Notes under the pieces: generated by a model
Databases searched by the model: none
What the model saw: the letters and a program-made list of their open reading frames with translations, nothing else
Told to the model about the DNA's origin: nothing
IMG/VR virus record: IMGVR_UViG_3300011013_002877
Coordinates: 1 to 24,471 of that record
DNA from: a virus
Strand: one strand, 5' to 3'
DNA length: 24,471 nt
Position numbers and translations under genes: made by a program
In this document: positions 1 to 22,532 of the stretch, in pieces
Layout of the letters: each line of letters opens with the position of its first letter
How positions within the stretch are numbered: position 1 is the stretch's first letter

Positions 1-1129
1 ATAACACAACTTTATCTTCAGTCATTTTTATTTTTGATTCTACTTCAACCGGATATTTAAAGTAAAACTCTTGAAATTTTGACTCTATTAAATCATGGGA
101 TTCTACAGTTGAAGAGCTGAGTTGTACTGTTGTAAAGCTTTTAGCCTGTTTATCGTATTTCTTTTTTGGATTTTCTAAATCTTTACTTTTATCAATATTT
201 AAAATTCGTTTTTGAATAGTATGAAATGAAAGTTTCCCTATATCACATGTAATCCATTTTCGATTTAATTTTTCAGCTACTGCAGCAGTTGTACCTGAAC
301 CTCCAAAAAAATCTAAAACAATATCACCTTCATTTGTTGCTGATTTTACAATTCTTTTCAAAAGGTTTTCATTCTTTTGTGTAGGATAACCGGTTTTTTC
401 ATTATTAAAAGACATAATTTGAATCGAATTCATAGAATCTAATTCTGAACTATTCCATGTGTCTTCAATTGCATAACCCTTACCTTTTGGTTTTGACCCG
501 TCTCTGCGAACATAATCATCAGCATAAGGGATATATTCTTTATTAAATTGAAAATTATCAGATTTCGTGTAAAAAAGAATAACATCATGGTTTCTTATCC
601 AATTTTCAGCCTTTGTTTTATACCCCGATATCCATCCTATTCTCCATATAATTTCTCTTTGAAATTTGAAACCTAGTTCATCCATTATTATTTTAATGTA
701 ATGAGAACTTTTTTCATCTAAATGAATATATATACTTCCTTGTTCATCTAAAATTTCTTTTGCAACTATTAGTCTTCTTCTTAAAAATTCAATAAATTCA
801 GTCCCCTTTACTTTGTCTGTATACGCTTTTTGTCCATTTCTGCCTTTAAAATCTTTTTTAGTAGTAAAAGGTGGATCAATATAGATGAGTTTAACTTTTC
901 CTTTTACTTTATCTTTTATCAGAGGATCTTTGTTTTCATAGATGGTTTTTAAAAATTGTAAATTATCACCAAAAGCAATAATGTTTTGCCAATCATCTTC
1001 TTGTGATTCAGAATTAGCACTATAAATTTTTTCTACTTGTAAAGTCGCTGGGTACACATCGTCTTCGTTATCTAAAACGTCATCTTCGTCCATCTTTCCT
1101 TTATAAATTAATTTGCACTCGTCACTCAT
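1..1129 (-). CDS. DNA methyltransferase, beta-class, type III Mod-like (partial at left edge)
   Basis: This ORF starts at ATG 1129 behind AAAGGAATAAC and reads open through base 1, so at least 376 residues are present and the C-terminus is missing. The target-base catalytic motif DPPF is at residues 85-88, preceded by an AFGDN-containing segment near residue 52. The AdoMet-binding motif DFFGGSGTT is at about 273-281. The order catalytic motif first, AdoMet motif last, is that of beta-class amino-methyltransferases such as type III Mod subunits, which methylate adenine N6 (or cytosine N4). In a phage it most likely protects the phage's own DNA from host restriction. It is the last gene seen in the minus-strand block, 19 nt after UvsW. 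Whether a Res subunit follows is outside the window. The methylated base and recognition site cannot be told. Confidence 0.88.
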   Translation of the reverse strand, partial: MSDECKLIYKGKMDEDDVLDNEDDVYPATLQVEKIYSANSESQEDDWQNIIAFGDNLQFLKTIYENKDPLIKDKVKGKVKLIYIDPPFTTKKDFKGRNGQKAYTDKVKGTEFIEFLRRRLIVAKEILDEQGSIYIHLDEKSSHYIKIIMDELGFKFQREIIWRIGWISGYKTKAENWIRNHDVILFYTKSDNFQFNKEYIPYADDYVRRDGSKPKGKGYAIEDTWNSSELDSMNSIQIMSFNNEKTGYPTQKNENLLKRIVKSATNEGDIVLDFFGGSGTTAAVAEKLNRKWITCDIGKLSFHTIQKRILNIDKSKDLENPKKKYDKQAKSFTTVQLSSSTVESHDLIESKFQEFYFKYPVEVESKIKMTEDKVVL

Positions 1130-1148
1130 GTTATTCCTTTCATGTTGC

Positions 1149-3095
1149 TTAAACTATTACCAATCTCTCTTGTATTGGAAATCCCTCAGGTATGTAACTC
1201 AAGTTTAAACGATTGATATACTGTCTATAAAATGGTCCGCTTCTTCCTCTAGCACTTAAGTCATCAACAAAATCGTAAATTTCAGCAGTATTTTTTGAAA
1301 CAAATAATCTAATAGCCCTGCCTAATGATTGTGTTATTGTAGTGTAACTTTTCAATGGACTTGCAAATACGATATTCTTTAACGATTTTATGTTCAAACC
1401 TGTGCTCATCAGCGCGTACCCACTTACAACTATACAATTATTATGTGTTCTAAGGATATCGAATATCTTTTCACGGTCTTTAGGTTTTGTTGCACCTGCT
1501 ACATAAAAGACCTTGTATTCTTCTTGAAATTCAACAGCATGTTTGCCAACGATGTGTTTCTTTTCAACTTTTATACCTGGATTTTTAATGTTTATCAATA
1601 ATGTGAATAAGTCTTGCATATGTTGGATATGCTGGCACAATACAACAGTATTACCGTTTTGTGTAACTTTATCAGATAGTCTTGATATCAAGATGTTTCT
1701 ATTTTTATGTTCTTTTATAAATTGTAGTTGTTTTGTGTAATTTCCAACATGTTTAAAAATAGCTTTATCATCATTATTATACATTAATCGTATAACATTT
1801 ATATTAACAGGTGTAGCTAAACCGCGCTCAATAAGGCCTTGCGTTTTTATATATCTTTTTGGTTTACCTGTACATGCCATGATAGACATTTTTGCTATTT
1901 GGTCTTCCGGTAATGTACCTGTTAATCCAATTCTATATTTTGCATTAGTGCATTTGTAAACAATATCAGCTGCTTTAGTATCTAACTTAAGTTGATGCGT
2001 CTCATCTATTATCACAAAGTCAAAATTTTCAAAACCTTTTTCAATTAACATAGCACTTTGCCAAGTTGTTACAGTTATCTGTTTATCAAAGGCTTTTACT
2101 TTATTGTCACCACCTATTAACCGTATAGACTCGAGAAAATCATCCGACGCATTGTAATCTTTACAATCATTATAGATTTGAGTGGTTAGTGAGACTGAAG
2201 GTACTAATAACATACCTTTTAGATTTTTTGATTTAAAAAATGATAATATACAGTAAATACATGCTGATTTTCCCGAGTTATGATGTATTACACCGTTCTG
2301 TATATATGTTTGAAATTCGTTCTGTACCTCAAAATCTATCCATCGTTGAGACGGAACAATTTCTATACCAATAATTTGTTTAGATTTTTTACCAAATTTA
2401 TCTGTTAAAAAGTCACCAATATTTAGCTCATTAGCAGGTAACCACTCATTGTTAACTAAGAGATAATGTGTATCAGCGCATTTTATACAAGTATCGTCGC
2501 TCAAGTAAAGTTTTCTACCACTGAAATATTTTTCAAATACACGCGAAATGTTATCGTAACCATTAGGGGTTTCAACCTTTATTTTCTGGTTGTTGTTTTT
2601 TAAATATAACAATTCTTCATATGTGATTGTGGTTTTAATTTTACCTTTTGGTGTTAAAAATTTTTTAAGTAATTTATAAGCATCCTCTGATATTTCGACG
2701 TTTATTTCTGACTGTGGATCCAGACAACCGGTCGCGGCCAATGCTATTTGGTTTTTTTTCTGTATAGATTCTACTACTATTTGTTTTTGATAATCATACA
2801 ACTTAAAAGGCATATTTAAATTTTCTATATGTTCAAGAATTTCTTGTTCGCTATATTCCGGGGTTTCTGGTACATCTGTTACAAATGCTAAAAGTCCTGA
2901 AGGTATAATAATACTACTTGCATCACTTGGATCTATAACATAAAAAACTTCAGAATCTGGTTTGAGGCCTCTTTTTATCATAGGATCAAAATAAGCATTT
3001 GGGATTTTAATTGTAAATTTTCTCTTGATTTCTTGAAGTTCTTCTGGCATTCCAGAAATTTTATAGAAAGATTCGTTTATTTTTTGCGTAGTCAA
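1149..3095 (-). CDS. uvsW: UvsW-type SF2 DNA/RNA helicase precursor containing a mini-intein
   Basis: This is a 648-aa precursor. Removing the intein (residues 124-273) leaves about 498 residues, close to T4 UvsW, the ATP-dependent helicase that drives branch migration, unwinds R-loops and shuts off origin-dependent replication. The Q-motif-like segment PFKLYDYQ is at about 96-103. The P-loop is split as AATG (120-123) and SGKS (274-277). The DETH box lies in FVIIDETHQ, followed by GLTGT (motif III) and QSLGRAIR (motif VI). The start is TTG at 3095, with AAAGGA five bases upstream; no in-frame ATG fits better. A 10-bp hairpin lies just upstream. It sits between Hsp20 and the methyltransferase. 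The protein is inactive unless the intein is excised, because the intein interrupts the ATP-binding loop. The identification is confident from the motif set and length. Confidence 0.9.
   Translation of the reverse strand: MTTQKINESFYKISGMPEELQEIKRKFTIKIPNAYFDPMIKRGLKPDSEVFYVIDPSDASSIIIPSGLLAFVTDVPETPEYSEQEILEHIENLNMPFKLYDYQKQIVVESIQKKNQIALAATGCLDPQSEINVEISEDAYKLLKKFLTPKGKIKTTITYEELLYLKNNNQKIKVETPNGYDNISRVFEKYFSGRKLYLSDDTCIKCADTHYLLVNNEWLPANELNIGDFLTDKFGKKSKQIIGIEIVPSQRWIDFEVQNEFQTYIQNGVIHHNSGKSACIYCILSFFKSKNLKGMLLVPSVSLTTQIYNDCKDYNASDDFLESIRLIGGDNKVKAFDKQITVTTWQSAMLIEKGFENFDFVIIDETHQLKLDTKAADIVYKCTNAKYRIGLTGTLPEDQIAKMSIMACTGKPKRYIKTQGLIERGLATPVNINVIRLMYNNDDKAIFKHVGNYTKQLQFIKEHKNRNILISRLSDKVTQNGNTVVLCQHIQHMQDLFTLLINIKNPGIKVEKKHIVGKHAVEFQEEYKVFYVAGATKPKDREKIFDILRTHNNCIVVSGYALMSTGLNIKSLKNIVFASPLKSYTTITQSLGRAIRLFVSKNTAEIYDFVDDLSARGRSGPFYRQYINRLNLSYIPEGFPIQERLVIV
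2277..2726 (-). other. Mini-intein in the UvsW P-loop (150 aa)
   Basis: Residues 124-273 of the UvsW precursor form a complete cis-splicing element. It begins with Cys (CLDPQSEINV, block A), has a block-B-like segment ADTHYLLV, and ends VIHHN followed by Ser, giving the canonical penultimate His, terminal Asn and +1 Ser. Joining the flanks restores AATG-SGKS, a proper Walker A motif. No LAGLIDADG, HNH or other endonuclease domain fits in 150 residues, so this is a mini-intein. Its C-terminal part shares a TP(N/D)GY(D/Q)NI stretch and overall layout with the split intein of PhoH in this window. Confidence 0.9.
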
Positions 3096-3130
3096 ATCAA
3101 TCCTTTAAATCACATTCGGTTAGTGTTTTT

Positions 3131-3157
3131 GAGAGAACTCATGGTAAGAGTTCTCTC
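3131..3157. repeat. Perfect 10-bp inverted repeat (hairpin) between hsp20 and uvsW
   Basis: GAGAGAACTC, a 7-nt loop ATGGTAA, and GAGTTCTCTC form a perfect 10-bp stem. In the minus-strand direction of the flanking genes the stem is followed by A residues, not U, so it is not a classical intrinsic terminator for them. On the plus strand only a short TTT follows. It may instead stabilise or process mRNA, or modulate uvsW translation from the start 36 bases further on. Confidence 0.6.
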
Positions 3158-3183
3158 TTTGAATTAATCAAATAATTAGAATG

Positions 3184-3570
3184 CTATTTTATTTCTAAGT
3201 ATTTGAATTTTGGTTTTACTCTTTTGAATTCAACTGTGAGCAGCCCATTTTTAGCGGTTATTTCACCCAATTCAGTATTTTTAGGTGTCTGAAATTTTCT
3301 TGTAAAATTTCTCATACTGAGGTTTCTTTCAAAATATTGACGTTCTGATGTTTTATCACTGTCGTCATCTTTGGTTTCTGTTTTTTTACCTTCAACAACA
3401 AATAATCCTTCATCATCAAAATATGCTGATAATTCGGATTTGTCAAAACCTGTGACAGCCATTTCTATGAATGTACTATCCCCTTCATTGTAAGTGTTAT
3501 ATGGTGGGTAAAATGAACCACTACTTTTTATTGAAGCTTCCAAGAAGTCTTCTAAATCATTTGTAAACAT
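3184..3570 (-). CDS. Small heat-shock protein, Hsp20/alpha-crystallin family
   Basis: This 128-aa protein belongs to the alpha-crystallin domain family, whose members are ATP-independent chaperones that hold unfolding proteins. The order of beta-strand segments is typical: a core ending in FEVEGKK-like text (LFVVEGKKTE), a Phe-rich RYFERNLSMRNFTRKF stretch, then ITAKNGLLTVEFKR near the C-terminus, the family's 'A-x-x-x-n-G-v-L' motif. I chose ATG 3570 because a near-perfect Shine-Dalgarno (AAGGAGG) lies seven bases upstream. An in-frame ATG at 3639 would add 23 basic residues that do not look like the family. Hsp20 genes are common in T4-like cyanophages and other large marine phages. About 225 bases of non-coding leader precede it. 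Confidence 0.85.
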   Translation of the reverse strand: MFTNDLEDFLEASIKSSGSFYPPYNTYNEGDSTFIEMAVTGFDKSELSAYFDDEGLFVVEGKKTETKDDDSDKTSERQYFERNLSMRNFTRKFQTPKNTELGEITAKNGLLTVEFKRVKPKFKYLEIK

Positions 3571-3795
3571 TGTTTTCCTCCTTAAGTAAAAACGTTTCTG
3601 GGCTTTTGTTTGTTTGTAGCCACAACCTATTCCGACCATTTAGTACCGAAATATATAAATGTCTTACACAATCGACATAGTTTGCTATGTATATTTCCTA
3701 TTTTTAAGTACTCTATCCGTTAACCTCCTTTGTCTTGATTTAACATAACAAATAAATATAAATTTAAATATATAAATCTGTATAAATCTATAACA
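3571..3795 (-). other. 225-base non-coding leader between the TnpB-like remnant and hsp20
   Basis: No credible gene is visible here. Features seen: a very AT-rich proximal third; an orphan AAAGGAGG (minus strand, about 3722-3729) not followed by any usable start codon; a 6-bp hairpin ACATAG-TTTG-CTATGT at 3675-3690; and the strong hsp20 ribosome site at its end. Because it directly follows a TnpB-related C-terminus, it could be a decayed element end or guide-RNA-like region, or an hsp20 regulatory leader. Neither can be shown from sequence alone. Confidence 0.4.
3675..3690. repeat. Short hairpin ACATAG-TTTG-CTATGT
   Basis: A perfect 6-bp inverted repeat with a 4-nt loop. A similar hairpin (CATAG-TT-CTATG, 4285-4296) lies at the other side of the TnpB-like ORF. 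IS200/IS605 elements carry subterminal hairpins at both ends, so the pair may mark remnant element ends. The stems are short and could be chance in AT-rich DNA. Confidence 0.35.
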
Positions 3796-4287
3796 TTATG
3801 TCACAGACGGTAGTATGTTAATCCTACCTGGGTCTAGAATTAATCTAGAATTATCACTCTCACATCTATGTACATTGAATAACAAGCTAGATGGATTAGT
3901 CATGAATTGAGCAGTTAGCTCCCCTAGAGTTATGTAGCCTAATCTCTTTAATTTAGACCACAAGGACCAATTGCTTTTAGTATTGTCATTTACCCACTTA
4001 AATTTATTGTCAGCATGCTCCGCTGCTGACAATAGTGATTTAATAGGTATAGATACTAATGAACCATTGACCCTGATTATTACCTTGGCTTTCTCTTGAA
4101 ACCCGAGACCCCTTCTGCCTATAACTAGAGCAGCACTTAAGTCTTTAGATTTTGAGTCATGACTAAGGTCATATCCATTAAGTAATGCATATTTGAACAA
4201 TCCAATTACAGATGTATATGCTGGATTAATTCTCTTTAGTTTAATGCCATTTCGGGCACACTTACTTTCTAGTAAATCTGAGAACAT
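3796..4287 (-). pseudogene. C-terminal remnant of a TnpB-related (IS200/IS605-type) RuvC nuclease
   Basis: This 163-aa ORF resembles only the C-terminal part of TnpB-related accessory proteins of IS200/IS605 elements. Residues about 19-28 read KRINPAYTSV, the family's conserved stretch after RuvC-II. A RuvC-III-like segment DLSAALVIGRRGLGF follows, equivalent to the D-x-N-A-A-x-N-I-x-x-R-G-L of TnpB, with the catalytic Asp kept. The CxxC zinc finger of true TnpB is absent, as in the TnpB-related branch. The N-terminal wedge, RuvC-I and RuvC-II are missing, and nothing upstream (4288-4342, AT-rich) supplies them. No clear Shine-Dalgarno precedes ATG 4287, which lies in a small hairpin. Base composition is visibly less AT-rich than its neighbours, suggesting import. 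It is likely a decayed insertion; a domesticated short protein is possible. Confidence 0.65.
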
Positions 4288-4333
4288 AGTTCTATGAAAT
4301 TTACTGATGATTTACTTTATAATAATTATAAAG
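4285..4333. repeat. Two inverted repeats upstream of the TnpB-like remnant
   Basis: CATAG-TT-CTATG lies at 4285-4296 and overlaps the ORF start codon. CTTTATAA-TAA-TTATAAAG, a perfect 8-bp stem, lies at 4315-4333. They sit at the truncated side of the TnpB-like gene and may be element-end structures or a terminator/attenuator. The second is pure A/T except one G-C pair, so its stability is low. Confidence 0.35.
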
Positions 4334-4342
4334 AAAGTTTAC

Positions 4343-4537
4343 TTAATTTTTTTCCAAAAAATCAATAATTCTATCTGAAATATTTTTGTCACATTCTTGT
4401 TGAATGTCCATAAGAAAATCTTTGTACTTGTTTAAAGTTTCTTGTGCATCCATTAGGTCAAGTTTTAAATTCTCGACTTTTTGCTTCAGTGGCCTTGTTT
4501 TAACGTCTTTATATCTGTTGTATTGTTTTCTTCTCAT
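4343..4537 (-). CDS. Small basic/coiled-coil protein of unknown function
   Basis: About 64 residues from ATG 4537; a TTG at 4552 would add five residues. Neither start has a good Shine-Dalgarno. The N-terminus is strongly basic (MRRKQYNRYKDVKTR), followed by a heptad-like amphipathic helix (VENLKLDLMDAQETLNKYKD) and an acidic C-terminal helix. It almost abuts the stop of the upstream 923-aa helicase gene, so it may be translationally coupled to it. I do not recognise a family. A small accessory factor of the helicase is a guess from position only. Confidence 0.55.
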   Translation of the reverse strand: MRRKQYNRYKDVKTRPLKQKVENLKLDLMDAQETLNKYKDFLMDIQQECDKNISDRIIDFLEKN

Positions 4538-4554
4538 TTTAAACTGTGCCAAAT

Positions 4555-7326
4555 CTAAAATTGTTTTATGAAACCATAAAATTGTTTTATATTTGGATCA
4601 ACCCTCCATACTTTTTGTGATTTATTTAAAAATTCTTTTTTTTCAAACTCACTCATAAGTGAGATATCTTTTTCGGATGTATTTATTTCTTTAGGACCTC
4701 GTTTATAACCTGCTTCTTTTAATATATATAACAATTTTTTATCAGCATGTATATAATATTGTTTAATCGGTACTTGACCCAGTTTTAACAATCTCGAAAA
4801 AAATACTGTACTCTCATTACGAATCATCGCATCAGATATTTTTGTCTTAATATAAGTCTCATCAACAAATTTTTGTGTAAAATCTAAAAGTACACGGTAG
4901 TTTTTACATTTTGTAATAAAGTTTTTGTCTTTTATACAAATTTTTAAAATTTTTTCTCGTATATTATCAGAAGTATCCGGCAATAATTCATCATTCATCT
5001 GAACTAATGTGTTTAATATCTTTTCTCCAGATAATTCATTATGTTTTGATTTCAATAAAAGTTTTATTTTTTCGGAATCTGATAAATTTAAAAAGTCATT
5101 AATATAAATTTGTTGCATTTCTTCTTTATTTTTTTGAAGTTCTTTACTATATCTAGTTAATATATTACCTTCAAATTTATTCTCTATTATTCGAGGTTCA
5201 TTAAAGAAATGATACTTCATCAGCCAAAACATTGCTTTTTTGTGGTTAAATTCAAGTATGTTTTTAAATGTATCAATTTTAATAGCATTTTTGCCTATTT
5301 TACTTAATCGCTGTGTACCGTAATCATCTACGCTAAATAAAAAATTCTGGTCTATATTTTTGCCAATATTTCCAAGATATTCATCTCTAACAGAATCATA
5401 AGTTGTTTTAACATAATTTGTTCTATCGGAAATATACATGTGTATCTCAGTCGCTTTCCTAGTTCTCTTGATCATTTGGATACTCGAGATAACGTCTGTA
5501 CTCATACTAGTATCATAGTGATAATGCGCATATATATTGTTTAGATTACTAACACCAACTGTTAAGCTTGGACTATAAAGAAACACGTCCCATTTATCAT
5601 GTTCTTCTTCTTTGAATAATTCATATATAAGTTTTTTAGTACTGCCTGGTGTATCAGCAGTTAGTAGAATACATTTTTTTCCGTGTTTTTCAAGCAATCT
5701 TTTTGTGCTTCTTAAAAAGTTCAAAGATGTACCTGATACTGTTATCTTTTGCTGCTTGGCCTTGTGTAACAATGATTGAAAAAAGTAATTCTTGTTTTCA
5801 TAACTATAAAGAATTGTTTTGTCTCTGTTATGATTGTTTAACAAATACACATTAGATGTTTTGTTTTCAAGTAAAAAGTTTTCATATCCTGTCAAAAAAG
5901 CGTCTGCTATTACTAATTTTTTATTGAAAGCACCAAAAAACTTCGCTAAGTTTAAAGAACTATTTCCAAGATTATTACGACTGTGACACATTAGAGAAAT
6001 AAATTCATCCATAATAACTAAATCAAAATTTTTGATATCATACTTCCACAGACTATCAAATTGCACGATAATAGAATCATTTAAATTATATTGGTCTTTA
6101 TTGTATATTTTCATACCGTACTTATTTGCAAAATCAACCGCAACTGATATTCTATTTGTTATGATGAGTGTTCTTAAATCTTGTGCATTTGCTTCATCTA
6201 TTATAGCTTTAATAATTGTTGATTTACCTGTCCCCATTGGTGATTTTATACAATAAAGACCGTCTTTTTCAGAGATAAACTTTTCAATTTCATCCATTCT
6301 ATTAAATTCTTTGCCATCATATGTGCCTCTGACTTTTAAGTACCTTTCATTCGTTTGAATCACTTTTGTACTTGTATTAAAATGCATTAATTCTTTATCG
6401 TAATCAAGTTCAGTGTTAAGTAATTTTTTACCAATTTCTGTTGAGCGTACTGCGTCAAATATGTTTATACTTCTTGTACTATTGAAATGGTGCATTGTGA
6501 AAGGACTATTATTAAACCAAAAATATCCTCCTATAGATTTAGTTTCAGACGGGTGCTTAAACTGTATGGAGCCATTTTCATTAGCTTTCATAGCTTCAAA
6601 TCCCATGGATTTATAAACATTTAGGCAATAATCCTCAATACTATCACCTGTTATGTCGTTTATATTGAATTTTTCAACAATACCAGTTTTATCCCCTTTT
6701 TTAAGATTTGTGTACTCATCTGCTAGTGTGTTTATTCTTCTCTCGAGGCTGCATTTATACAGGTACTTATCTTTGTTCAAAAGAATTTTATTTTTTTGGA
6801 TAGGGGCATTAAATGAAGCTATCCTACCAACTGCTTCATCAATTTCACAGAGGTCTTTTAAATCATAACTGAGATTTGATATTGCATTCTTATAATCGTT
6901 TATACTAATAGGCTCTATAAAAAGAATACCTTTCATATTAAAATTATCTTTATTATTATACGATTTAGACTCACCAAGTATACATTTATACTTGCTGAAA
7001 TATTGGAGAATTAAATCTCTATCTTTAGCAGTACGTACTTTGTCGATGTCTAAAATCATATATGTTATTTCATCTGTACAATAATATTCTAGTGTTTCTT
7101 TTCTTCGATAAGTTCGTATAGGTTCAGGTAATTTTGAAAGGGGTATATTTAATACCCAATAACTTACCAATGTATTAAACATTTCTACGTTGTTATAACC
7201 ATCTATAACATAATTTTTAAAAATAAATGTTTTATCATAGTAAGGTGACCAAGCACTTTTTTGATTTTTTTCACTTGGTCGTTGAGCGTTGAATACGGTT
7301 AAGTTGTGTTTTTTTACTTCAATCAA
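4555..7326 (-). CDS. Origin-binding-type SF2 helicase with N-terminal primase-like (AEP) region
   Basis: A 923-aa protein. The N-terminal region contains MILDIDK (Asp93, Asp95), resembling the hhhDhD metal-binding motif of archaeo-eukaryotic primases, and then a GESKSYNN...KGILFIEP segment. A helicase core follows: Walker A SPMGTGKST at 362-370, TLIITNRISV (motif Ia), a DEAD-like box VIMDEF at about 437-442, SLTVGVS at about 587-593 and QMIKRTRK at about 617-624 (motif VI). This order resembles the herpesvirus UL9-type replication-origin-binding helicases. The C-terminal 270 residues are helical and unrecognised. The start is TTG 7326 with AAAGGA five bases upstream. It probably helps initiate or restart phage DNA replication. 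The primase-like assignment is the weaker part, since the second AEP motif is not clear. Confidence 0.7.
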   Translation of the reverse strand: MIEVKKHNLTVFNAQRPSEKNQKSAWSPYYDKTFIFKNYVIDGYNNVEMFNTLVSYWVLNIPLSKLPEPIRTYRRKETLEYYCTDEITYMILDIDKVRTAKDRDLILQYFSKYKCILGESKSYNNKDNFNMKGILFIEPISINDYKNAISNLSYDLKDLCEIDEAVGRIASFNAPIQKNKILLNKDKYLYKCSLERRINTLADEYTNLKKGDKTGIVEKFNINDITGDSIEDYCLNVYKSMGFEAMKANENGSIQFKHPSETKSIGGYFWFNNSPFTMHHFNSTRSINIFDAVRSTEIGKKLLNTELDYDKELMHFNTSTKVIQTNERYLKVRGTYDGKEFNRMDEIEKFISEKDGLYCIKSPMGTGKSTIIKAIIDEANAQDLRTLIITNRISVAVDFANKYGMKIYNKDQYNLNDSIIVQFDSLWKYDIKNFDLVIMDEFISLMCHSRNNLGNSSLNLAKFFGAFNKKLVIADAFLTGYENFLLENKTSNVYLLNNHNRDKTILYSYENKNYFFQSLLHKAKQQKITVSGTSLNFLRSTKRLLEKHGKKCILLTADTPGSTKKLIYELFKEEEHDKWDVFLYSPSLTVGVSNLNNIYAHYHYDTSMSTDVISSIQMIKRTRKATEIHMYISDRTNYVKTTYDSVRDEYLGNIGKNIDQNFLFSVDDYGTQRLSKIGKNAIKIDTFKNILEFNHKKAMFWLMKYHFFNEPRIIENKFEGNILTRYSKELQKNKEEMQQIYINDFLNLSDSEKIKLLLKSKHNELSGEKILNTLVQMNDELLPDTSDNIREKILKICIKDKNFITKCKNYRVLLDFTQKFVDETYIKTKISDAMIRNESTVFFSRLLKLGQVPIKQYYIHADKKLLYILKEAGYKRGPKEINTSEKDISLMSEFEKKEFLNKSQKVWRVDPNIKQFYGFIKQF

Positions 7327-13529: not shown

Positions 13530-13645
13530 GTTTTTTCCTTTTTTAGTCTCTTTGGACTTTTTCTATAATTCAAATCTGGACTATATTGTCGAACTGTTCA
13601 CTAAACCGTTTAACGTCTCGAGGGACGATATCATTTATATTTATA
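13530..13645 (-). promoter_or_regulatory. gp32 leader with candidate late promoter and structured RNA
   Basis: On the minus strand an exact TATAAATA box (13645-13638) lies in the last codons of the endonuclease gene, 108 nt before the gp32 ATG. The leader then holds a short CGTC-CCTCGA-GACG hairpin, further self-complementary pieces (GTTAAACGGTTTAGTGAAC, GACAATATAGTC) and finally an A-rich, unstructured ribosome site. T4 gp32 represses its own translation by binding from a leader pseudoknot into an unstructured A/U-rich ribosome site. The layout here is compatible with that, but the fold is not proven. Confidence 0.45.
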
Positions 13646-15277
13646 TATTCCACCTCCACAATCGTAAATTTTTCGGTATTTTCTGGGATTCTCGGGTTTT
13701 TCTTTTAACTCAAGTTTAGGTGTGTTAGGTAAAAAATAAAAAAGTTTAGGCTTAACATAGTGACTAAACTTGAACCCTAGTTTTTCATATTCTGAGCCAT
13801 CCGACCATCTTCTATCAGCATAACTAGTGATTTCATCTGGCTTAAAGGTATTTTTGAAAAAATCAAATATTTTTGAAAATTCAGCTACAATACCTAATTT
13901 ATTACACATTCTTGTTAGTTCAAAATTATTGTTTAAATATCTAAAAGTCATAACTTGAATTAAGTCATCCAATCTATATAAACCAATATGTATATCTGAT
14001 TCTACATAACCCATGAGATGATTATTTTCAAGAAATGTTTCAGCTTCCTTGGAAGATATCTCTTTCACAGTACATTTATCGACGTTTGTTGGTGATATTA
14101 TACCCAAATTTTGATTAATAATTTGTTTCCAAATATCTTTTTTATAAATCCACTCGTTTTCAAATATATGTAGCAAATGAATACCTTTGTTTTCACACAT
14201 TTCTGTTTTTATGAGATGTTTATTAGGATCTTCTTTAGATGCGTTATCAAATTTTTCATATTTTGATTCACCAAACGAGTGGTACATTAACCCATCATAT
14301 TCTATTGCGAGATTACCAACCCTCAAGTCAAGTTCTAAGGGATATATAGACCTTCTGTCATTTTGTATTCCATCTCCAATAAATCTATAAATCTCTTCTT
14401 CTGCTTTCGATCTGATAGGTTTACATCTTGGACACCCTGTTCCTTTTAAGTGATTATTAGGAGTTACTCTAAAATCACCATGCTCTTTACATGTGATATA
14501 GACGTCGTCACAACTTCTTTTGTACACAACATTATCATATGTGTAAGTATCACCAAATATTTTTCTTGATTTCTCGATGAAAAGTTCAGTCGTGTATTTA
14601 TTATCATGCATTTCTGTTCTTCTCTCTTTATCACACATTTTACACGCGTGTTTACCTGTTATAAAACTGGCTTTTGCAATTTTATTTTGAGTACAATGTT
14701 TGGTACACACATAAGATACTTTACCATCTTTGATTTCAAGGTCATCATAACACTCTGGGTAGTTGAATTCTTTTCGAATTTTTATAATCCGTTCTTTTTC
14801 TTTTGTGTATCTTTCTAGTTTATAACACTCTGGACACCCTTTACCTTTTTTGTGTTTGTATGCTTTTATATTAAAATCACCATGTATTTTACATGTGACT
14901 ATGATGTAGTTATCACGACCAGTGTAAACAGTCTTTTCGTATGAATATTTTAGATGCTCGAAATTACCAGAATCTTTCAAATATTTTAAGTTATCTGATG
15001 AACTTTTAGTTGTATTTAAACCATGTACTTCACGGCACTGTCGGATAAACTCGTCAGTGCTCATAAGCATATTGTAATCGTCTCTGCGAAAACCACACTT
15101 TGGACAACCGTAGTAAATATGGTCATTTGGACGTTGCCAAAAAGAACCATGTTCCGGGCAAATTATCTCTATCTTTGTTTGTGAATTGACATATATTGCA
15201 TTAGAATAGTCGTATTTGTTACCATGTTTTTCTTTAAATTTTACTACAGCGTCTTCAAGTGTATATTTTTTCGCCAT
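13631..15277 (-). CDS. Free-standing Vsr-like (EDxHD) homing endonuclease with zinc-ribbon repeats
   Basis: A 548-aa protein. The N-terminal half carries four related DNA-binding-type zinc ribbons of the DUF723 kind: C40-P-E-H43...C58-P-K-C61; C129...H132...C148...C151; a divergent one around C191-C215; and C263...H266...C282...C285. The nuclease domain begins at about 292 (AEEEIYRFI), with PLELDLRV (Asp317), LAIEYDGLMYHSF (Glu326, Asp328, His333) and LLHIFENEW, the pattern of very-short-patch-repair-like EDxHD homing endonucleases, often annotated Hef-like in phages. The C-terminal region (about 400-548) is the family's extra domain. It sits 12 bases after the clamp gene with only a poor ribosome site, and ends in the gp32 leader. 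Such a gene inserted between essential genes fits homing. Confidence 0.85.
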   Translation of the reverse strand: MAKKYTLEDAVVKFKEKHGNKYDYSNAIYVNSQTKIEIICPEHGSFWQRPNDHIYYGCPKCGFRRDDYNMLMSTDEFIRQCREVHGLNTTKSSSDNLKYLKDSGNFEHLKYSYEKTVYTGRDNYIIVTCKIHGDFNIKAYKHKKGKGCPECYKLERYTKEKERIIKIRKEFNYPECYDDLEIKDGKVSYVCTKHCTQNKIAKASFITGKHACKMCDKERRTEMHDNKYTTELFIEKSRKIFGDTYTYDNVVYKRSCDDVYITCKEHGDFRVTPNNHLKGTGCPRCKPIRSKAEEEIYRFIGDGIQNDRRSIYPLELDLRVGNLAIEYDGLMYHSFGESKYEKFDNASKEDPNKHLIKTEMCENKGIHLLHIFENEWIYKKDIWKQIINQNLGIISPTNVDKCTVKEISSKEAETFLENNHLMGYVESDIHIGLYRLDDLIQVMTFRYLNNNFELTRMCNKLGIVAEFSKIFDFFKNTFKPDEITSYADRRWSDGSEYEKLGFKFSHYVKPKLFYFLPNTPKLELKEKPENPRKYRKIYDCGGGIYKYK

Positions 15278-15289
15278 ACATATCTAAAA

Positions 15290-15988
15290 CTATTTTTTTG
15301 CTGCCATCAAAACTGTCATGTCAATATCCATTGAATTTAACACGACTCTAAACGCGTCTTTTGATTTATTATATTTTACTTCTAATTTATAAGTACTTGA
15401 CGGTAAAGCGTTAAAGTTCTCGGCTGGAACTTTCACTGTAAAATCTTTCGTACAATTAGTATTATTTTTAGCAATACTAAATGAGTTACTTTTAGCGTTA
15501 AAATTGTTTGTGTTACCAAGTTTAATCTCGAGGTCACCATCCTTAGATGTAAAAATAACTTCGTTTAATTCCTTAAATATACCAGAAGCTGTTCTAATTT
15601 TTTTCATATCTTCTTCTGTGATTTCCACAGAACACACACTTGGAAATTCTATAGTCCTTGTAAATATACTCTCAGGTTTATCGTACCCGTCTAATACAGA
15701 AATATTGGAAGTAATATATTGAATAGAACTAGTGTTTGATGTAATAGAGACAATATTATCTAATACTGAGCATTTATATTCATCAAATAATTTAAACGTA
15801 CTCAAAAATTCTGATAAATTATACACTCCTATTTCCGGGAACTCCTCTGAGTCTAGTTTATCTAGTCTAACACGCACAACCACATCACCTGATGGGTTAT
15901 TAAGAATTGTTGTAGGGTATCTCAAAATACCAGTGTTGGTGATTGTGTTCAGCGATTTTAGTACATGTATTACATTTTGATTTAACAT
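15290..15988 (-). CDS. 45: Sliding clamp, T4 gp45-like
   Basis: About 232 residues (T4 gp45: 228), the trimeric processivity ring that also activates late transcription with gp33/gp55. Recognisable features are the N-terminal helix VIHVLKSLNTITNTGIL (T4 'TTALLKNFATINSGIML'), EIGVYNLSEFLSTF (T4 'VAIYDLNGFLGIL'), the domain border IEFPSVCSVEITEEDMKKI and C-terminal STYKLEVKY. Two ATGs six bases apart exist; 15988 gives better spacing from AAAAGG and aligns with the T4 N-terminus, while 15994 abuts the ribosome site. Its presence agrees with the TATAAATA late promoters found here, which depend on this clamp in T4. T4 genes 44/62 (loader) are not adjacent; the homing endonuclease gene follows instead. 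Confidence 0.88.
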   Translation of the reverse strand: MLNQNVIHVLKSLNTITNTGILRYPTTILNNPSGDVVVRVRLDKLDSEEFPEIGVYNLSEFLSTFKLFDEYKCSVLDNIVSITSNTSSIQYITSNISVLDGYDKPESIFTRTIEFPSVCSVEITEEDMKKIRTASGIFKELNEVIFTSKDGDLEIKLGNTNNFNAKSNSFSIAKNNTNCTKDFTVKVPAENFNALPSSTYKLEVKYNKSKDAFRVVLNSMDIDMTVLMAAKK

Positions 15989-16044
15989 CTTCATCCTTTT
16001 TTTTTTGTTTTTTTATTTTATCGTAAATATGCTTAAACTTTTGG

Positions 16045-18896: not shown

Positions 18897-19151
18897 TTAA
18901 AATTCTGCGTTTTTCATATCTTCCGATACTTTTACATCTCTGTTCACATCTGGAATTGATGGTTTTTCAACTACTTCTTTGTTTATGTCAAAATCTTCAT
19001 CTAAATTAAGCGGTACTTCGATTTTTTCTTTTTGTTTAGATTTGGAAGGTTCGGAAATAATAACAGTTTCACCACCTTCGTCGCCTTCATCGAAGTTTAT
19101 ATCTATTTTTATGTGCTTTATATTTGGAGCATCTTCAATCTTTATAACCAT
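18897..19151 (-). CDS. Acidic, largely disordered protein upstream of the actin-like gene
   Basis: 84 residues from ATG 19151 behind AGGAATACA. The first 20 residues (KIEDAPNIKHIKIDINFDEG) could form a short beta unit; the rest is rich in Glu, Asp, Lys, Ser and Pro with no hydrophobic core, so it is probably disordered. No family is recognised. It ends 12 bases before the ParM-like gene, so the two are very likely co-expressed. Plasmid parM genes are paired with a small adaptor, but this protein has no DNA-binding motif. An adaptor or regulator role is only suggested by position. Confidence 0.6.
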   Translation of the reverse strand: MVIKIEDAPNIKHIKIDINFDEGDEGGETVIISEPSKSKQKEKIEVPLNLDEDFDINKEVVEKPSIPDVNRDVKVSEDMKNAEF

Positions 19152-19191
19152 TGTATTCCTTATAACAAATATTTAAAATTATATACAAAAT

Positions 19192-20589
19192 TTACTTAAT
19201 TTTTTCATCACCAAATTCGTCTGCCCACTCAGCAATAGCTGACCTCACTGTCTTATCTAAAACAAACCCAGCGACATTAACGTTTTTATTATTTTTACCA
19301 ATCTTTCTCATTAAGTACGTCAACGCGTTATTGTATTTATTAAGGTATGCAGTATCTATTTGTTTCGTACTACCTAATATAAAAACTTTGCAATTTTCAG
19401 ATATCCTAGTTAGTATTGTTTTTACACTGGATATTGAGTTATTTTGACAATTTTTACTCAAAATAGATATTAAGTCGCCAAGCATGTAATTGTGATTATT
19501 ATCCACACTAGGAGTGTATATAAATCCATCATACGGTATTTTTCGAATAGAATTAATTCTAACTCCTTCTAATCTGTCGCCATTACTCGTAAAAAGCAAG
19601 TCATTTTCTTTGATGTTTTTAACAAATTTGTAAGAATTATTTACGAATAATCTGTGACTTCCTGTTACTTGAATTGTTTGAAATACACTATCAAAATCAA
19701 ATTCTATTTCGTACATTTCTTCGTCCGTCTCATCTATACTTTGTCTTTTTATAGAATTGATTTTTTCAAAAGTAAATCTTTTTAATTTATGAGAATAACT
19801 CTTCACATACACATTTTCAGTTCGTATCAAATCATATATATCTTTTATACTCATTTTACCTTTAGTGGTTTCTAAAATTTGTGTTTCAGAGAGACACTCA
19901 TCTAAAATAACTATCGCGTTTCTTATATTTGACCCTCTCAAATGCCCTTCGTACTTAAATTGTATTTGATACTTGTTTATAAAATCGTCTAATTTATTGT
20001 TTAATTCCTCTTGGGTTAATTTTGTTTTTCTATTATTATATTTTTTTTCTATTATATATTCTAAATTAGAGTACAGCGGTGCTAGGAATCCTTGTATTTT
20101 TTCTTCTAAACTTCCTTTTAAAAAACCAAGTTCTTCTGAATCTGAGATAACAGTTTTTCGAATATACACGATCTTATCGTACTTATCATGATGGGTATCA
20201 ATTAGTCTCATTGCAGCACTTAATGCTACTAAAGTTTTTCCTGAATTATGAGATATTATATTATCACTATAATAACGATGATTTGGGTGCAAAACTTCTA
20301 AATCATATGTGTCATGAACACCTATGTTTATAATTTGGAGGACTTTAAAACCACCGATCGTTACATCACCTTCTTTTAAATCAATTGATTTTACCCAGCC
20401 AGTTTGCATTTGAAATAAATGGTCTACTGAGCATTCAATTATATCGCCGTTCGAAAAAGAAACAGATAAACATTCTTTGTTTGGCTTGTGATAAACTTCA
20501 CCTATGTTTTGATAACCGTCTGGTGTACTTATTTGTATATCTTCGAAATTATCTTTGTAAAACTGCAGATCTTTTACATTAATTTTCAT
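19192..20589 (-). CDS. phoH: PhoH ATPase C-half: split-intein C-fragment, PhoH domain, second mini-intein
   Basis: 465 residues. Residues 1-115 are the C-terminal part of a split intein, ending IISHN. Ser116 then begins SGKTLVALSAAM, the second half of the PhoH Walker A motif. The PhoH domain continues (IVYIRKTV; GFLKGSLEEKIQ; HLRGSNIRNAIVILDE, Walker B). It is interrupted by a 149-aa mini-intein (232-380) and resumes CQNNSISSVKTILTRI, then FILGSTKQID and the C-terminus. The ORF has its own ATG (20589) and Shine-Dalgarno (AAAAAGG, six-base spacing), 54 bases after the stop of the N-half. It cannot make a functional ATPase alone. After trans-splicing to the N-half and loss of the second intein, PhoH would be about 463 aa, normal for PIN-PhoH proteins. 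Confidence 0.9.
   Translation of the reverse strand: MKINVKDLQFYKDNFEDIQISTPDGYQNIGEVYHKPNKECLSVSFSNGDIIECSVDHLFQMQTGWVKSIDLKEGDVTIGGFKVLQIINIGVHDTYDLEVLHPNHRYYSDNIISHNSGKTLVALSAAMRLIDTHHDKYDKIVYIRKTVISDSEELGFLKGSLEEKIQGFLAPLYSNLEYIIEKKYNNRKTKLTQEELNNKLDDFINKYQIQFKYEGHLRGSNIRNAIVILDECLSETQILETTKGKMSIKDIYDLIRTENVYVKSYSHKLKRFTFEKINSIKRQSIDETDEEMYEIEFDFDSVFQTIQVTGSHRLFVNNSYKFVKNIKENDLLFTSNGDRLEGVRINSIRKIPYDGFIYTPSVDNNHNYMLGDLISILSKNCQNNSISSVKTILTRISENCKVFILGSTKQIDTAYLNKYNNALTYLMRKIGKNNKNVNVAGFVLDKTVRSAIAEWADEFGDEKIK
19450..19896 (-). other. Contiguous mini-intein in the PhoH Walker B box (149 aa)
   Basis: Residues 232-380 of the C-half begin CLSETQILETTKGKMSIKDI (block A) and contain VTGSHRLFV (block B with the T-x-x-H-like His), GFIYTPSVDNNHNYML (block F) and LISILSKN before Cys381. 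Removal yields VILDE-CQNNS, the PhoH Walker B and following Q-N. The penultimate residue is Lys rather than the usual His, an uncommon but tolerated variant in some inteins. No endonuclease domain fits. Confidence 0.88.
20245..20589 (-). other. C-terminal fragment of the PhoH split intein (115 aa)
   Basis: Residues 1-115 of the C-half ORF hold the parts of an intein normally found after block A: STPDGYQNIG, block B CSVDHLF, then DTYDLEVLHPNHRYY (block F) and NIISHN before Ser (block G, with penultimate His, terminal Asn and +1 Ser). It lacks an initiating Cys1 of its own, which is supplied by the preceding ORF. It aligns by eye with the C-terminal two-thirds of the UvsW mini-intein. Confidence 0.88.
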
Positions 20590-20643
20590 TTTTTACCTTT
20601 TTTATAACTTTATTTAGTCTTCTTGAAGTTCTTAAACACGGAA

Positions 20644-21831
20644 TCAAAAATCTTGACATATAATTTTTTGTTTTTGTTTAATAGAATCTACATCATTATT
20701 CTCAAATATTTTAACATATTCAAGTCTTGCTTTCTTTAAAAAGTTCAAAGACCATTTCAATGATTTATTCGTTCCTAACCAGTATCTTAATTGTAAATAT
20801 TTTGATTTGTATTTCTTATCATCTTCAAATACTATTTTTTGTTCATGATTTAACTTCGTGTATAGCAGTACTGTGCTGTTAAAGTCAGCTAAATTATATT
20901 TTTGTGTTTGGGTAGTTCGTATAAGATTTTTTTCACAAAGTTGTTTAAGACTTTTCTTATCGATACCAAATAAATTTTTCACTTCTGATGATGTTATATA
21001 TTTTTCAGTAAATTTGATGTCTATTTGAGTACCTGGAAGTGTGCAACCAGCTGGTGAATCACTAACTACGACGTCGTAGTAATCATCCATAAATTGGGAT
21101 ACTAATACTTTTTGTCCCATGTTTTGAGGTGTAATTTCTTGTTTTGAAATTAATTTATCGTCTATTTGTACAAATAAGTTACCTGTTCTGTAATAAAAGA
21201 AAGGTTTACCATTCTGATCTGTTATTTTAATATGTTGAGCAGTTTTGGGTATGTCTTTAGAAAATATATCAAAAACATTGTACTCATGAGCAGGATTTTC
21301 TAGTGTAAGTTCGCCCGACAGTACTGCATCTTTATCTTCACTAACATTAAAAGATTGTACTTCAACTCCTTCTGCGAGTGCACGATTTTTAGCCATTATA
21401 TCTAGGCTAATAAATTTTACATTTGAATTTTCTGTTTGCATATCTCGGGCTATCTCAATGATTTTTCTATCATTGATAATACTTCTTTCAAAATCACCGT
21501 TATTTGAAACATATTTCTTTTTGGAAACTACGTTGATATAAGCTACTTTACCATTTAAAAAAGCCCTGGCTGAAACTGTGACCATTTTTTTATTAGAAGC
21601 TCTTTCGACATGAAGTATTTCTGCCTCGTTATATATCCGACCAAATTGTCTCGCTTGGTAGTTAATCTCCAAATACCCGCTCTTTTTAGTATCCAATTCG
21701 TCTAATACCGTTTCAGGTAAAACAATTAGGTTTTCACCACCATCAGACAATGTAAATATATTCTCAACATCATTTAATATAATGTTCGTGTCGAGAACAT
21801 AAATTTTTTTAAATCTGGTTTTTCTTCTCAA
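20644..21831 (-). CDS. phoH: PhoH N-half: PIN domain, half a P-loop, split-intein N-fragment
   Basis: 395 residues. A PIN ribonuclease-type domain opens the protein (YVLDTNIILND, Asp14; LDELD near 43-47; KFISLDIMAKNRA, Asp144), followed by the linker of PIN-PhoH proteins up to VVSDSPAG (255-262), the first half of the Walker A motif. From Cys263 the sequence switches to an intein start (CTLPGTQIDIKF) and then to a 115-residue extension that looks like a winged helix-turn-helix (YITSSEVKNLFGIDKKSLKQ) plus a basic helical tail. The start is TTG 21831 with AAGGAAAATC upstream. An exact late-promoter box lies 17 nt before it. The stop is a genuine TGA followed by further stops. PIN-PhoH proteins are RNA-acting ATPases of uncertain role, common in phages. 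Confidence 0.88.
   Translation of the reverse strand: MRRKTRFKKIYVLDTNIILNDVENIFTLSDGGENLIVLPETVLDELDTKKSGYLEINYQARQFGRIYNEAEILHVERASNKKMVTVSARAFLNGKVAYINVVSKKKYVSNNGDFERSIINDRKIIEIARDMQTENSNVKFISLDIMAKNRALAEGVEVQSFNVSEDKDAVLSGELTLENPAHEYNVFDIFSKDIPKTAQHIKITDQNGKPFFYYRTGNLFVQIDDKLISKQEITPQNMGQKVLVSQFMDDYYDVVVSDSPAGCTLPGTQIDIKFTEKYITSSEVKNLFGIDKKSLKQLCEKNLIRTTQTQKYNLADFNSTVLLYTKLNHEQKIVFEDDKKYKSKYLQLRYWLGTNKSLKWSLNFLKKARLEYVKIFENNDVDSIKQKQKIICQDF
20647..21045 (-). other. N-terminal fragment of the PhoH split intein with HTH-like extension
   Basis: Residues 263-395 (133 aa) of the N-half. Only the first roughly 15 residues are recognisable intein (block A, Cys1), which makes this an atypically early split. 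The following 43 or so residues match the pattern of MerR/excisionase-like helix-turn-helix domains (S-S-E-V-K-N-L-F-G-I-D-K-K-S-L-K...I-R...Y-N-L-A-D-F). The rest is basic and helical. The extension may be a leftover DNA-binding part of a lost endonuclease or may help the halves associate. Confidence 0.75.
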
Positions 21832-21848
21832 GATTTTCCTTTTTGATT

Positions 21849-21856
21849 TATTTATA
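21849..21856 (-). promoter_or_regulatory. T4-type late promoter of phoH
   Basis: An exact TATAAATA on the minus strand, 17 nt before the TTG start and upstream of its AAAAAGGA ribosome site; same geometry as the capsid-like and gp15 genes. Confidence 0.7.
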
Positions 21857-21893
21857 GTCTGTTCAAATGTAATTTTAAGTTTTTAAATTTATG

Positions 21894-22532
21894 CTAAATG
21901 TTAAAATCAAATTGTTTAATTTTAACATTGTGGAATATCCCATTATCAAAATAAGGGGTATTTGTAAATTTTCTTAACCTGTTTTGGAGTCTAAAATATT
22001 TATAATTCAGCTCATGTTCCATATCTAAAACTGATTTCTTTTTTTCAACGAGTATATCTTGCTGAAGGGCAAGATTTTTTATCATTTTGTTTGTACACAA
22101 TGCAACATGAGTGTTCTTGATATATGTCCCAAAGAAATAAATTTTACCAAGTGTTTTAGACAATTCTATTCCTTCCGCACGATTTTTAAGATGAAAAAAA
22201 CAAGCGTAGTCTGATTTTTCTGCCTCTCTAAGAGGATTATTTAAGCCGTACTGCTTTAATCCTTTAATACCACCGAATGATTCTCTTCTTTGGAGCAAGT
22301 ACTCATCGCGTGGTGTAGCAGGCTCAACAACATTTATTAAGTATTGTAATTTATTATCAGGAAGATTATCGTAGTTTATCATAATAGGTTCTTGGAAAAT
22401 CTCTATCACGAAATGATACGGTGCTATTGTCATAATGTATTGTGCAAAACCAACATCATTATTTTTTAAAGCTTGTAATGTTTCATTGTAGAAATCAATA
22501 TTGTAGTAGTCATCAATAGTTATATATTTCAA
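21894..22532 (-). CDS. Unknown protein, 212 aa
   Basis: The start is TTG 22532 with AAAGGAACACAACA before it; no earlier ATG is in frame with a better site. The protein is soluble in character: an acidic N-terminal part (YITIDDYYNIDFYNETLQAL), a central segment with YLLQRRESFGG and GLNNPLREAEKSDYACFFHLKNR, and a basic helical C-terminal third (ELNYKYFRLQNRLRKF). There is no signal peptide, membrane segment, zinc site or nucleotide-binding motif. I do not recognise a family. It sits between another unknown gene and phoH on the same strand. Confidence 0.7.
   Translation of the reverse strand: MKYITIDDYYNIDFYNETLQALKNNDVGFAQYIMTIAPYHFVIEIFQEPIMINYDNLPDNKLQYLINVVEPATPRDEYLLQRRESFGGIKGLKQYGLNNPLREAEKSDYACFFHLKNRAEGIELSKTLGKIYFFGTYIKNTHVALCTNKMIKNLALQQDILVEKKKSVLDMEHELNYKYFRLQNRLRKFTNTPYFDNGIFHNVKIKQFDFNI

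What the first reader, a model, noticed from the sequence alone, without database searches (positions are those of the whole stretch)
20245..21045. PhoH is a fractured gene joined by an atypically split intein inside its P-loop
Seen: one ORF ends VVSDSPAG followed by Cys and an intein start; the next ORF, with its own Shine-Dalgarno and ATG, opens with the rest of an intein ending SHN, then SGKT. Joining the ends gives PAG-SGKT, a complete Walker A. The break falls right after block A, so only about 15 residues of recognisable intein are on the N side, unlike classical splits near the endonuclease site. Known: naturally split inteins with very short N-parts and fractured phage genes have been described from metagenomes (Dassa et al. 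2009 fractured genes; AceL-TerL type). I am not aware of this arrangement in PIN-PhoH. Inference: PhoH activity is produced only when both ORFs are translated and trans-spliced.
Basis: partly seen in the sequence, partly recalled or inferred. Interest (0 to 1): 0.92.

Follow-up and report, generated by a model that had tools for sequence, protein, structure and literature searches.

The report
Split-intein PhoH gene in a phage
A phage gene for the ATPase PhoH is broken into two genes at its ATP-binding loop, and each half carries part of a self-splicing protein element (an intein) related to the lab tool VidaL that should join the halves into one working protein; the first half still carries what looks like the stump of the DNA-cutting enzyme that once spread the element.

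Summary
PIN-PhoH is split between two ORFs (21831-20644 and 20589-19192, minus strand). The first ends PAG|C plus intein block A. The second opens with the rest of an intein ending ISHN|SGKT. Five in-frame stops separate them, so this is not one sequencing error. The conceptually spliced protein is 62% identical to an intein-free PhoH (L088), without a gap at the junctions. The C-half is homologous to VidaL, an experimentally active, atypically split (S1) intein (34% identity; Foldseek 1.8 A); VidaL's native locus (L037) is the same P-loop position of a phage RecA. So this is a VidaL-type S1-split intein in a new host gene. Two other PhoH genes are split there (L007; L003, a 462-kb phage). The N ORF runs 117 residues past the 16-residue IntN; this tail matches the start of a longer one in L007 that ends in a GIY-YIG/T5orf172 nuclease, so it is probably a homing-endonuclease remnant; of 33 other split relatives only L007 has such a run-on. 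And the same PhoH carries a contiguous intein at Walker B. Splicing itself is inferred, not shown.

The parts
21046..21831 (-). N-extein: PIN domain and first part of PhoH, ending VVSDSPAG (residues 1-262 of the N ORF)
   Evidence: Pfam PIN_4 E=3.6e-19; 63% identical to L007; 62% identical to L088 as part of the spliced protein
20998..21045 (-). IntN, 16 residues CTLPGTQIDIKFTEKY (block A; Cys1 = Cys263)
   Evidence: 10/16 identical to L007; same length as VidaL's IntN (16 aa, PMC13014065) and as the native N half at L037
20647..20997 (-). 117-aa C-terminal tail of the N ORF, probable remnant of a homing endonuclease fused to IntN (front part kept, nuclease missing)
   Evidence: BLASTP E=1.7e-22, 38% identity to the first 115 residues of the L007 tail, whose end is a T5orf172/GIY-YIG domain; in-frame 4-codon gap, dN/dS about 0.44
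20590..20646 (-). stop codon, then 54-nt gap with four further in-frame stops and an A-rich possible Shine-Dalgarno (AAGG)
   Evidence: sequence read; no Rfam intron
20245..20589 (-). IntC, 115 residues from MKINVKDL to IISHN
   Evidence: phmmer to VidaL 6VGV E=3.8e-16; AlphaFold model pLDDT 83, top Foldseek hit 6VGV E=1e-8, rmsd 1.8
19897..20244 (-). C-extein part 1: SGKT of Walker A up to Walker B ILDE
   Evidence: Pfam PhoH E=3.2e-28; gapless with L088
19450..19896 (-). second intein, contiguous, 149 aa, at Walker B (DE|CLSE...LSKN|CQN)
   Evidence: Pfam Intein_splicing E=3.9e-10, above cut-off; same site as in Campylobacter phages IBB_35 and CP20 (BLASTP E=9e-13 to CP20); absent from L007, L003 and L088
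19195..19449 (-). C-extein part 2: rest of PhoH from CQN
   Evidence: PHROG 2765 (PhoH) E=4.9e-47 across the C ORF; gapless junction with L088

Best explanation
PhoH here is a fractured gene. The upstream ORF makes PIN-PhoH-N fused to a 16-residue IntN and a 117-residue tail; the downstream ORF makes a 115-residue IntC fused to the rest of PhoH. IntN and IntC bind, fold into one Hint domain and splice in trans through Cys1, Asn115 cyclisation and Ser+1, giving PAG-SGKT and so a complete Walker A. A second intein at Walker B splices out in cis. The element is a VidaL-type intein naturally split at site S1. The tail is the decayed front part of a homing endonuclease that in a relative (L007) is still fused to IntN with a GIY-YIG-type nuclease. 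Shown by sequence: the two halves, their homology, the intact junction in relatives, the catalytic residues, purifying selection. Inferred: trans-splicing, dependence of PhoH function on it, and loss of the nuclease.
For: Both halves and junction residues present. Spliced sequence 62% identical and gapless at both junctions to intein-free PhoH L088, 36% to CP220. IntC homologous to VidaL by sequence (E=3.8e-16) and predicted fold (1.8 A). VidaL's IntC is identical over about 101 aa to the IntC at L037, whose native setting is the same: N ORF ending G|CLPKEAVVQIRLTKKG, endonuclease remains, IntC ORF, in the P-loop of RecA. Two more PhoH genes split at the same point: L007 and L003. Catalytic positions His57, His114, Asn115 invariant in 31 IntC sequences. 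dN below dS in N-extein (0.29/1.48), IntN (0.34/1.25), IntC (0.32/1.25), C-extein (0.19/1.18) between window and L007. Tail homology to the L007 nuclease-bearing tail. Among 33 split relatives IntN ORFs end 15-43 aa after Cys1 except L007 (384).
Against: No splicing was measured. dS between window and L007 is high and near saturation, and the 16-codon IntN is too short for its own test. The 117-aa tail could hinder splicing; its AlphaFold model is uninformative (pLDDT 39). That the tail is a nuclease remnant rests on one relative.
Confidence: 0.88

Rival explanations
1. The two ORFs are a dead PhoH: the gene was broken by intein decay and neither piece splices.
For: The nuclease is gone and the tail is shortened compared with L007.
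Against: All catalytic residues are kept; exteins, IntN and IntC all show dN well below dS against L007; the same split survives in L007 and L003; the second ORF keeps a start codon and a purine-rich leader.
Confidence: 0.06
2. The break is a sequencing or assembly error, or is bypassed by readthrough or an RNA intron.
For: The two ORFs are in the same frame.
Against: Five in-frame stops between them; L007, an independent contig, has the split at the same place with TAA directly before the second ATG; no Rfam intron in 19000-22000; the sequence between the extein ends encodes an intein.
Confidence: 0.01
3. Trans-splicing holds, but the tail is not a remnant: it is a kept DNA-binding, assembly or regulatory domain that acts while attached to IntN.
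For: Reading frame kept over about 115 codons against L007 with dN/dS near 0.44; a weak PHROG match of unknown function over its start (E=0.001).
Against: The tail diverges faster than IntN, IntC and exteins (39% versus 60-75% identity), as expected for a part under weaker constraint; no homologue outside L007.
Confidence: 0.25

Closest known systems
VidaL split intein (PDB 6VGV; Burton 2020 and Neugebauer 2017 as cited in PMC13014065)
   Same: Split at S1 with a 16-aa IntN; Cys1 and Ser+1; inserted at the same G|SGK point of a Walker A; IntC about 34% identical, 1.8 A.
   Different: VidaL sits in a phage RecA-type gene (L037), its N ORF stops right after IntN, and endonuclease remains lie between the two ORFs; here the host gene is PIN-PhoH and the N ORF runs on into a tail.
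PolB16 OarG split intein (PMC10189870)
   Same: Naturally split at S1 with a 15-aa IntN, from a metagenome.
   Different: Cysteine-less (Ser1), in PolB, only distantly similar (profile E about 0.002).
AceL-TerL and GOS-TerL split inteins
   Same: Atypical split with short IntN in a phage ATPase.
   Different: Split at S2, after helix 1; AceL-TerL IntN is 25 aa (PMC13014065).
Fractured genes of Dassa et al. 2009 (paper not held; known here from citations and memory)
   Same: Gene in two ORFs joined by a split intein, with an endonuclease gene between halves; L003 PhoH fits this.
   Different: In the window there is no endonuclease ORF between halves; in L007 the nuclease is fused to IntN rather than free-standing.
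PhoH inteins of Campylobacter phages IBB_35, CP20, CPt10 (PMC3322345)
   Same: Intein in phage PhoH at Walker B, the same site as the second intein here; in CP20 it is interrupted by an endonuclease ORF.
   Different: No P-loop intein; Walker A intact (SGSGKS).

Membership tests
Class 1 intein (Hint domain) | Cys/Ser at position 1, block B His, C-terminal His-Asn, nucleophile at +1 | tested here: met
   Cys263, His57, His114, Asn115, Ser116; His57, His114 and Asn115 invariant in 31 aligned IntC
Class 1 intein (Hint domain) | Hint fold | tested here: met
   IntC model pLDDT 83; the 50 PDB matches with E<=0.001 are inteins or intein-like domains, best VidaL
Naturally split, S1-type (VidaL-type) intein | Two ORFs with the break after the second beta strand, IntN of 15-16 aa | tested here: met
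   IntC starts at the position of VidaL IntC; IntN is 16 aa by alignment with L007 and L037, although the ORF goes on
Naturally split, S1-type (VidaL-type) intein | Trans-splicing activity | not testable with these tools
   needs expression
Naturally split, S1-type (VidaL-type) intein | N ORF ends at or soon after the end of IntN (usual, not strictly defining) | tested here: not met
   117-aa tail here; 32 of 33 split relatives end 15-43 aa after Cys1
Fractured gene with free-standing endonuclease between halves | Endonuclease ORF in the gap | tested here: not met
   54-nt gap; met in L003 (430-aa ORF)
PIN-PhoH (PhoH2-like) ATPase | N-terminal PIN plus PhoH ATPase with Walker A and B after splicing | tested here: met
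   Pfam PIN_4 and PhoH; spliced sequence 62% identical to L088
GIY-YIG homing endonuclease fused to IntN | Nuclease domain after IntN | tested here: not met
   absent in the window; present in L007 (T5orf172 24.7 bits, cut-off 20)

The most novel reading that the evidence does not exclude
PhoH N halves of the L007 kind are a distinct architecture: a split intein whose homing endonuclease (GIY-YIG type) is fused behind the very short IntN at split site S1, so that trans-splicing both builds PhoH and releases the IntN-endonuclease. The window is the next step, with the nuclease lost and the front part of it kept. The series contiguous, fused, free-standing and lost endonuclease would then show how atypically split inteins arise: by endonuclease insertion at S1.
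Probability: 0.4. Interest if true: 0.75.

Novelty: new variant of a known kind. Interest (0 to 1): 0.62.

Why it matters
Atypically split inteins with very short N parts are prized for protein labelling, but few are characterised and their origin is unclear. This locus gives a new host gene, a new pair of halves to test and, with its relatives, a natural series in which the endonuclease sits in different places at the same split point. A gene whose ATP-binding loop exists only after ligation is also a clean natural test of whether splicing gates enzyme activity.

Tried and rejected
Scan of viral contigs with the C ORF alone found nothing; an alignment with L003 was needed. The tail alone finds no relative in 50,697 phage records and only L007 in IMG/VR. 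A genome-contig scan found no relative. AlphaFold of the tail was uninformative. An RNA intron was sought and not found. Promoter-like and terminator-like patterns around the ORFs are no more frequent than in shuffles. Single origin of the three P-loop PhoH inteins was tested: holding them together is weakly disfavoured (AU p=0.0425, 103 columns), so two separate invasions are possible but not settled. A search of open-access papers for intein plus PhoH gave, among those I read, only the Campylobacter phage case.

Full report
What is there. On the minus strand, ORF N (21831-20644) holds a PIN domain and the first part of PhoH and reads ...DDYYDVVVSDSPAG|CTLPGTQIDIKFTEKY..., then goes on for 117 residues to a TGA. 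After 54 nt, ORF C (20589-19192) starts MKINVKDLQFYKDNFEDIQISTPDGYQ and reaches ...HRYYSDNIISHN|SGKTLVALSAAMRL. The two frames coincide but five stops lie between them. Pfam finds PIN_4 in N and PhoH in C. The window is a complete IMG/VR record of 24,471 bases, probably a phage fragment.

The exteins fit. Removing both inteins in silico gives 463 residues that align to the intein-free PhoH of contig L088 over 454 residues at 62% identity; the few small gaps lie in the PIN part and none at either junction. L088 reads NAPAGSGKTLIALSAAMRL at the first junction and ILDEFQN at the second.

The intein is VidaL-type. The 115-residue IntC alone matches VidaL (PDB 6VGV) at E=3.8e-16. The AlphaFold model of IntC has pLDDT 83 and its best PDB match is 6VGV at 1.8 A. 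The published short-IntN split sites are S1 (VidaL, PolB16 OarG) and S2 (AceL-TerL, GOS-TerL) (PMC13014065); this one is S1. An IMG/VR contig, L037, has an IntC identical to VidaL over the aligned stretch and shows the native setting: an 81-aa ORF ending GESG|CLPKEAVVQIRLTKKG, two endonuclease-like fragments, then the IntC ORF that continues SGKSYICAGN in a RecA-type protein. So VidaL and the window intein sit at the same point of Walker A in two different ATPases.

The family is broad. An alignment of window and L003 IntC retrieved 288 IMG/VR relatives, of which the best 80 were read. Among 54 distinct ones, 33 are split, 14 contiguous and 7 undetermined. Representative hosts are RecA-type, DnaB, UvrD and an AAA protein, entered at the P-loop. 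Gaps between halves fall into two groups: about 1.1-1.7 kb, usually with a long ORF, some matching homing endonucleases, and under 700 nt without one. The sample is biased towards sequences that share the motifs used in the scan.

PhoH has three cases: the window, L007 (67% identical over the query) and L003, the 462-kb phage LR756500. L003 has a free-standing 430-aa ORF between halves, related to the ORFs between RecA-type halves. Window and L007 inteins are sisters (100/93); L003 falls elsewhere and a single PhoH clade is weakly disfavoured (p=0.0425).

The tail. In L007 the N ORF runs 384 residues from Cys1: IntN, a region matching the window tail (E=1.7e-22, 38%), a stretch shared with the free-standing ORFs of other loci (39% to L015), and a terminal T5orf172/GIY-YIG domain above the Pfam cut-off for T5orf172. 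Its stop overlaps the IntC start, with a TAA directly before that ATG in the second frame, so this split is real too. The window tail covers only the first part. I infer that the window lost the nuclease. In the other split relatives no N ORF runs on.

Selection. Between window and L007, identity is 63% in N-extein, 62% in IntN, 39% in the tail, 60% in IntC, 75% and 68% in the C-extein parts; dN is about a fifth to a quarter of dS outside the tail and 0.44 of it within. dS is high, so ratios are rough.

Second intein. Walker B of the same protein holds a contiguous 149-aa intein (Pfam E=3.9e-10) at the site known from Campylobacter phages. PhoH in this phage would therefore need one trans- and one cis-splicing event.

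Mechanism and limits. Trans-splicing by the class 1 route follows from established intein chemistry and from the activity of VidaL reported in the literature (half-time about 1 min at 37 C, PMC13014065); it was not measured here. The dependence of PhoH on it is inferred because a complete Walker A does not exist in either half.

Noticed in passing
window 2277-2726 (within 1149-3095, minus): The UvsW-type helicase has a contiguous 150-aa intein in its own P-loop (AATG|CLDP...HHN|SGKS), related to the PhoH split intein (26%, E=7e-12): three inteins in one 24-kb fragment.
   Followed up: partly
window 13631-15277 (minus): Free-standing homing endonuclease (PHROG 559/3339) between the ssDNA-binding protein gene and 15290-15994; related to endonucleases that lie between split DnaB intein halves (E=3e-24).
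   Followed up: partly
L100 (CPt10) 862-3837 and L002 (CP20) 2362-5337: PhoH is annotated as a disrupted pseudogene in CPt10, but in CP20 the same arrangement reads as a classically split Walker-B intein with an endonuclease-like ORF between halves; it may be a working fractured gene.
   Followed up: partly
L043 2019-2477 versus L011 444-857: A contiguous RecA intein reads KYKQK-MNMYLEKEVNVAEL, as if a split pair (as in L011, VNMYFEKEVSVAEL) had been fused again: possible split-to-contiguous reversion.
   Followed up: no
L009 5926-8340: AAA protein with a VidaL-type split P-loop intein and a further intein match downstream in the same ORF.
   Followed up: no
L037 48-2679: Native locus of the VidaL intein recovered: 81-aa N ORF, two endonuclease-like fragments (300-695, 930-1421), then the IntC-RecA ORF.
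   Followed up: yes
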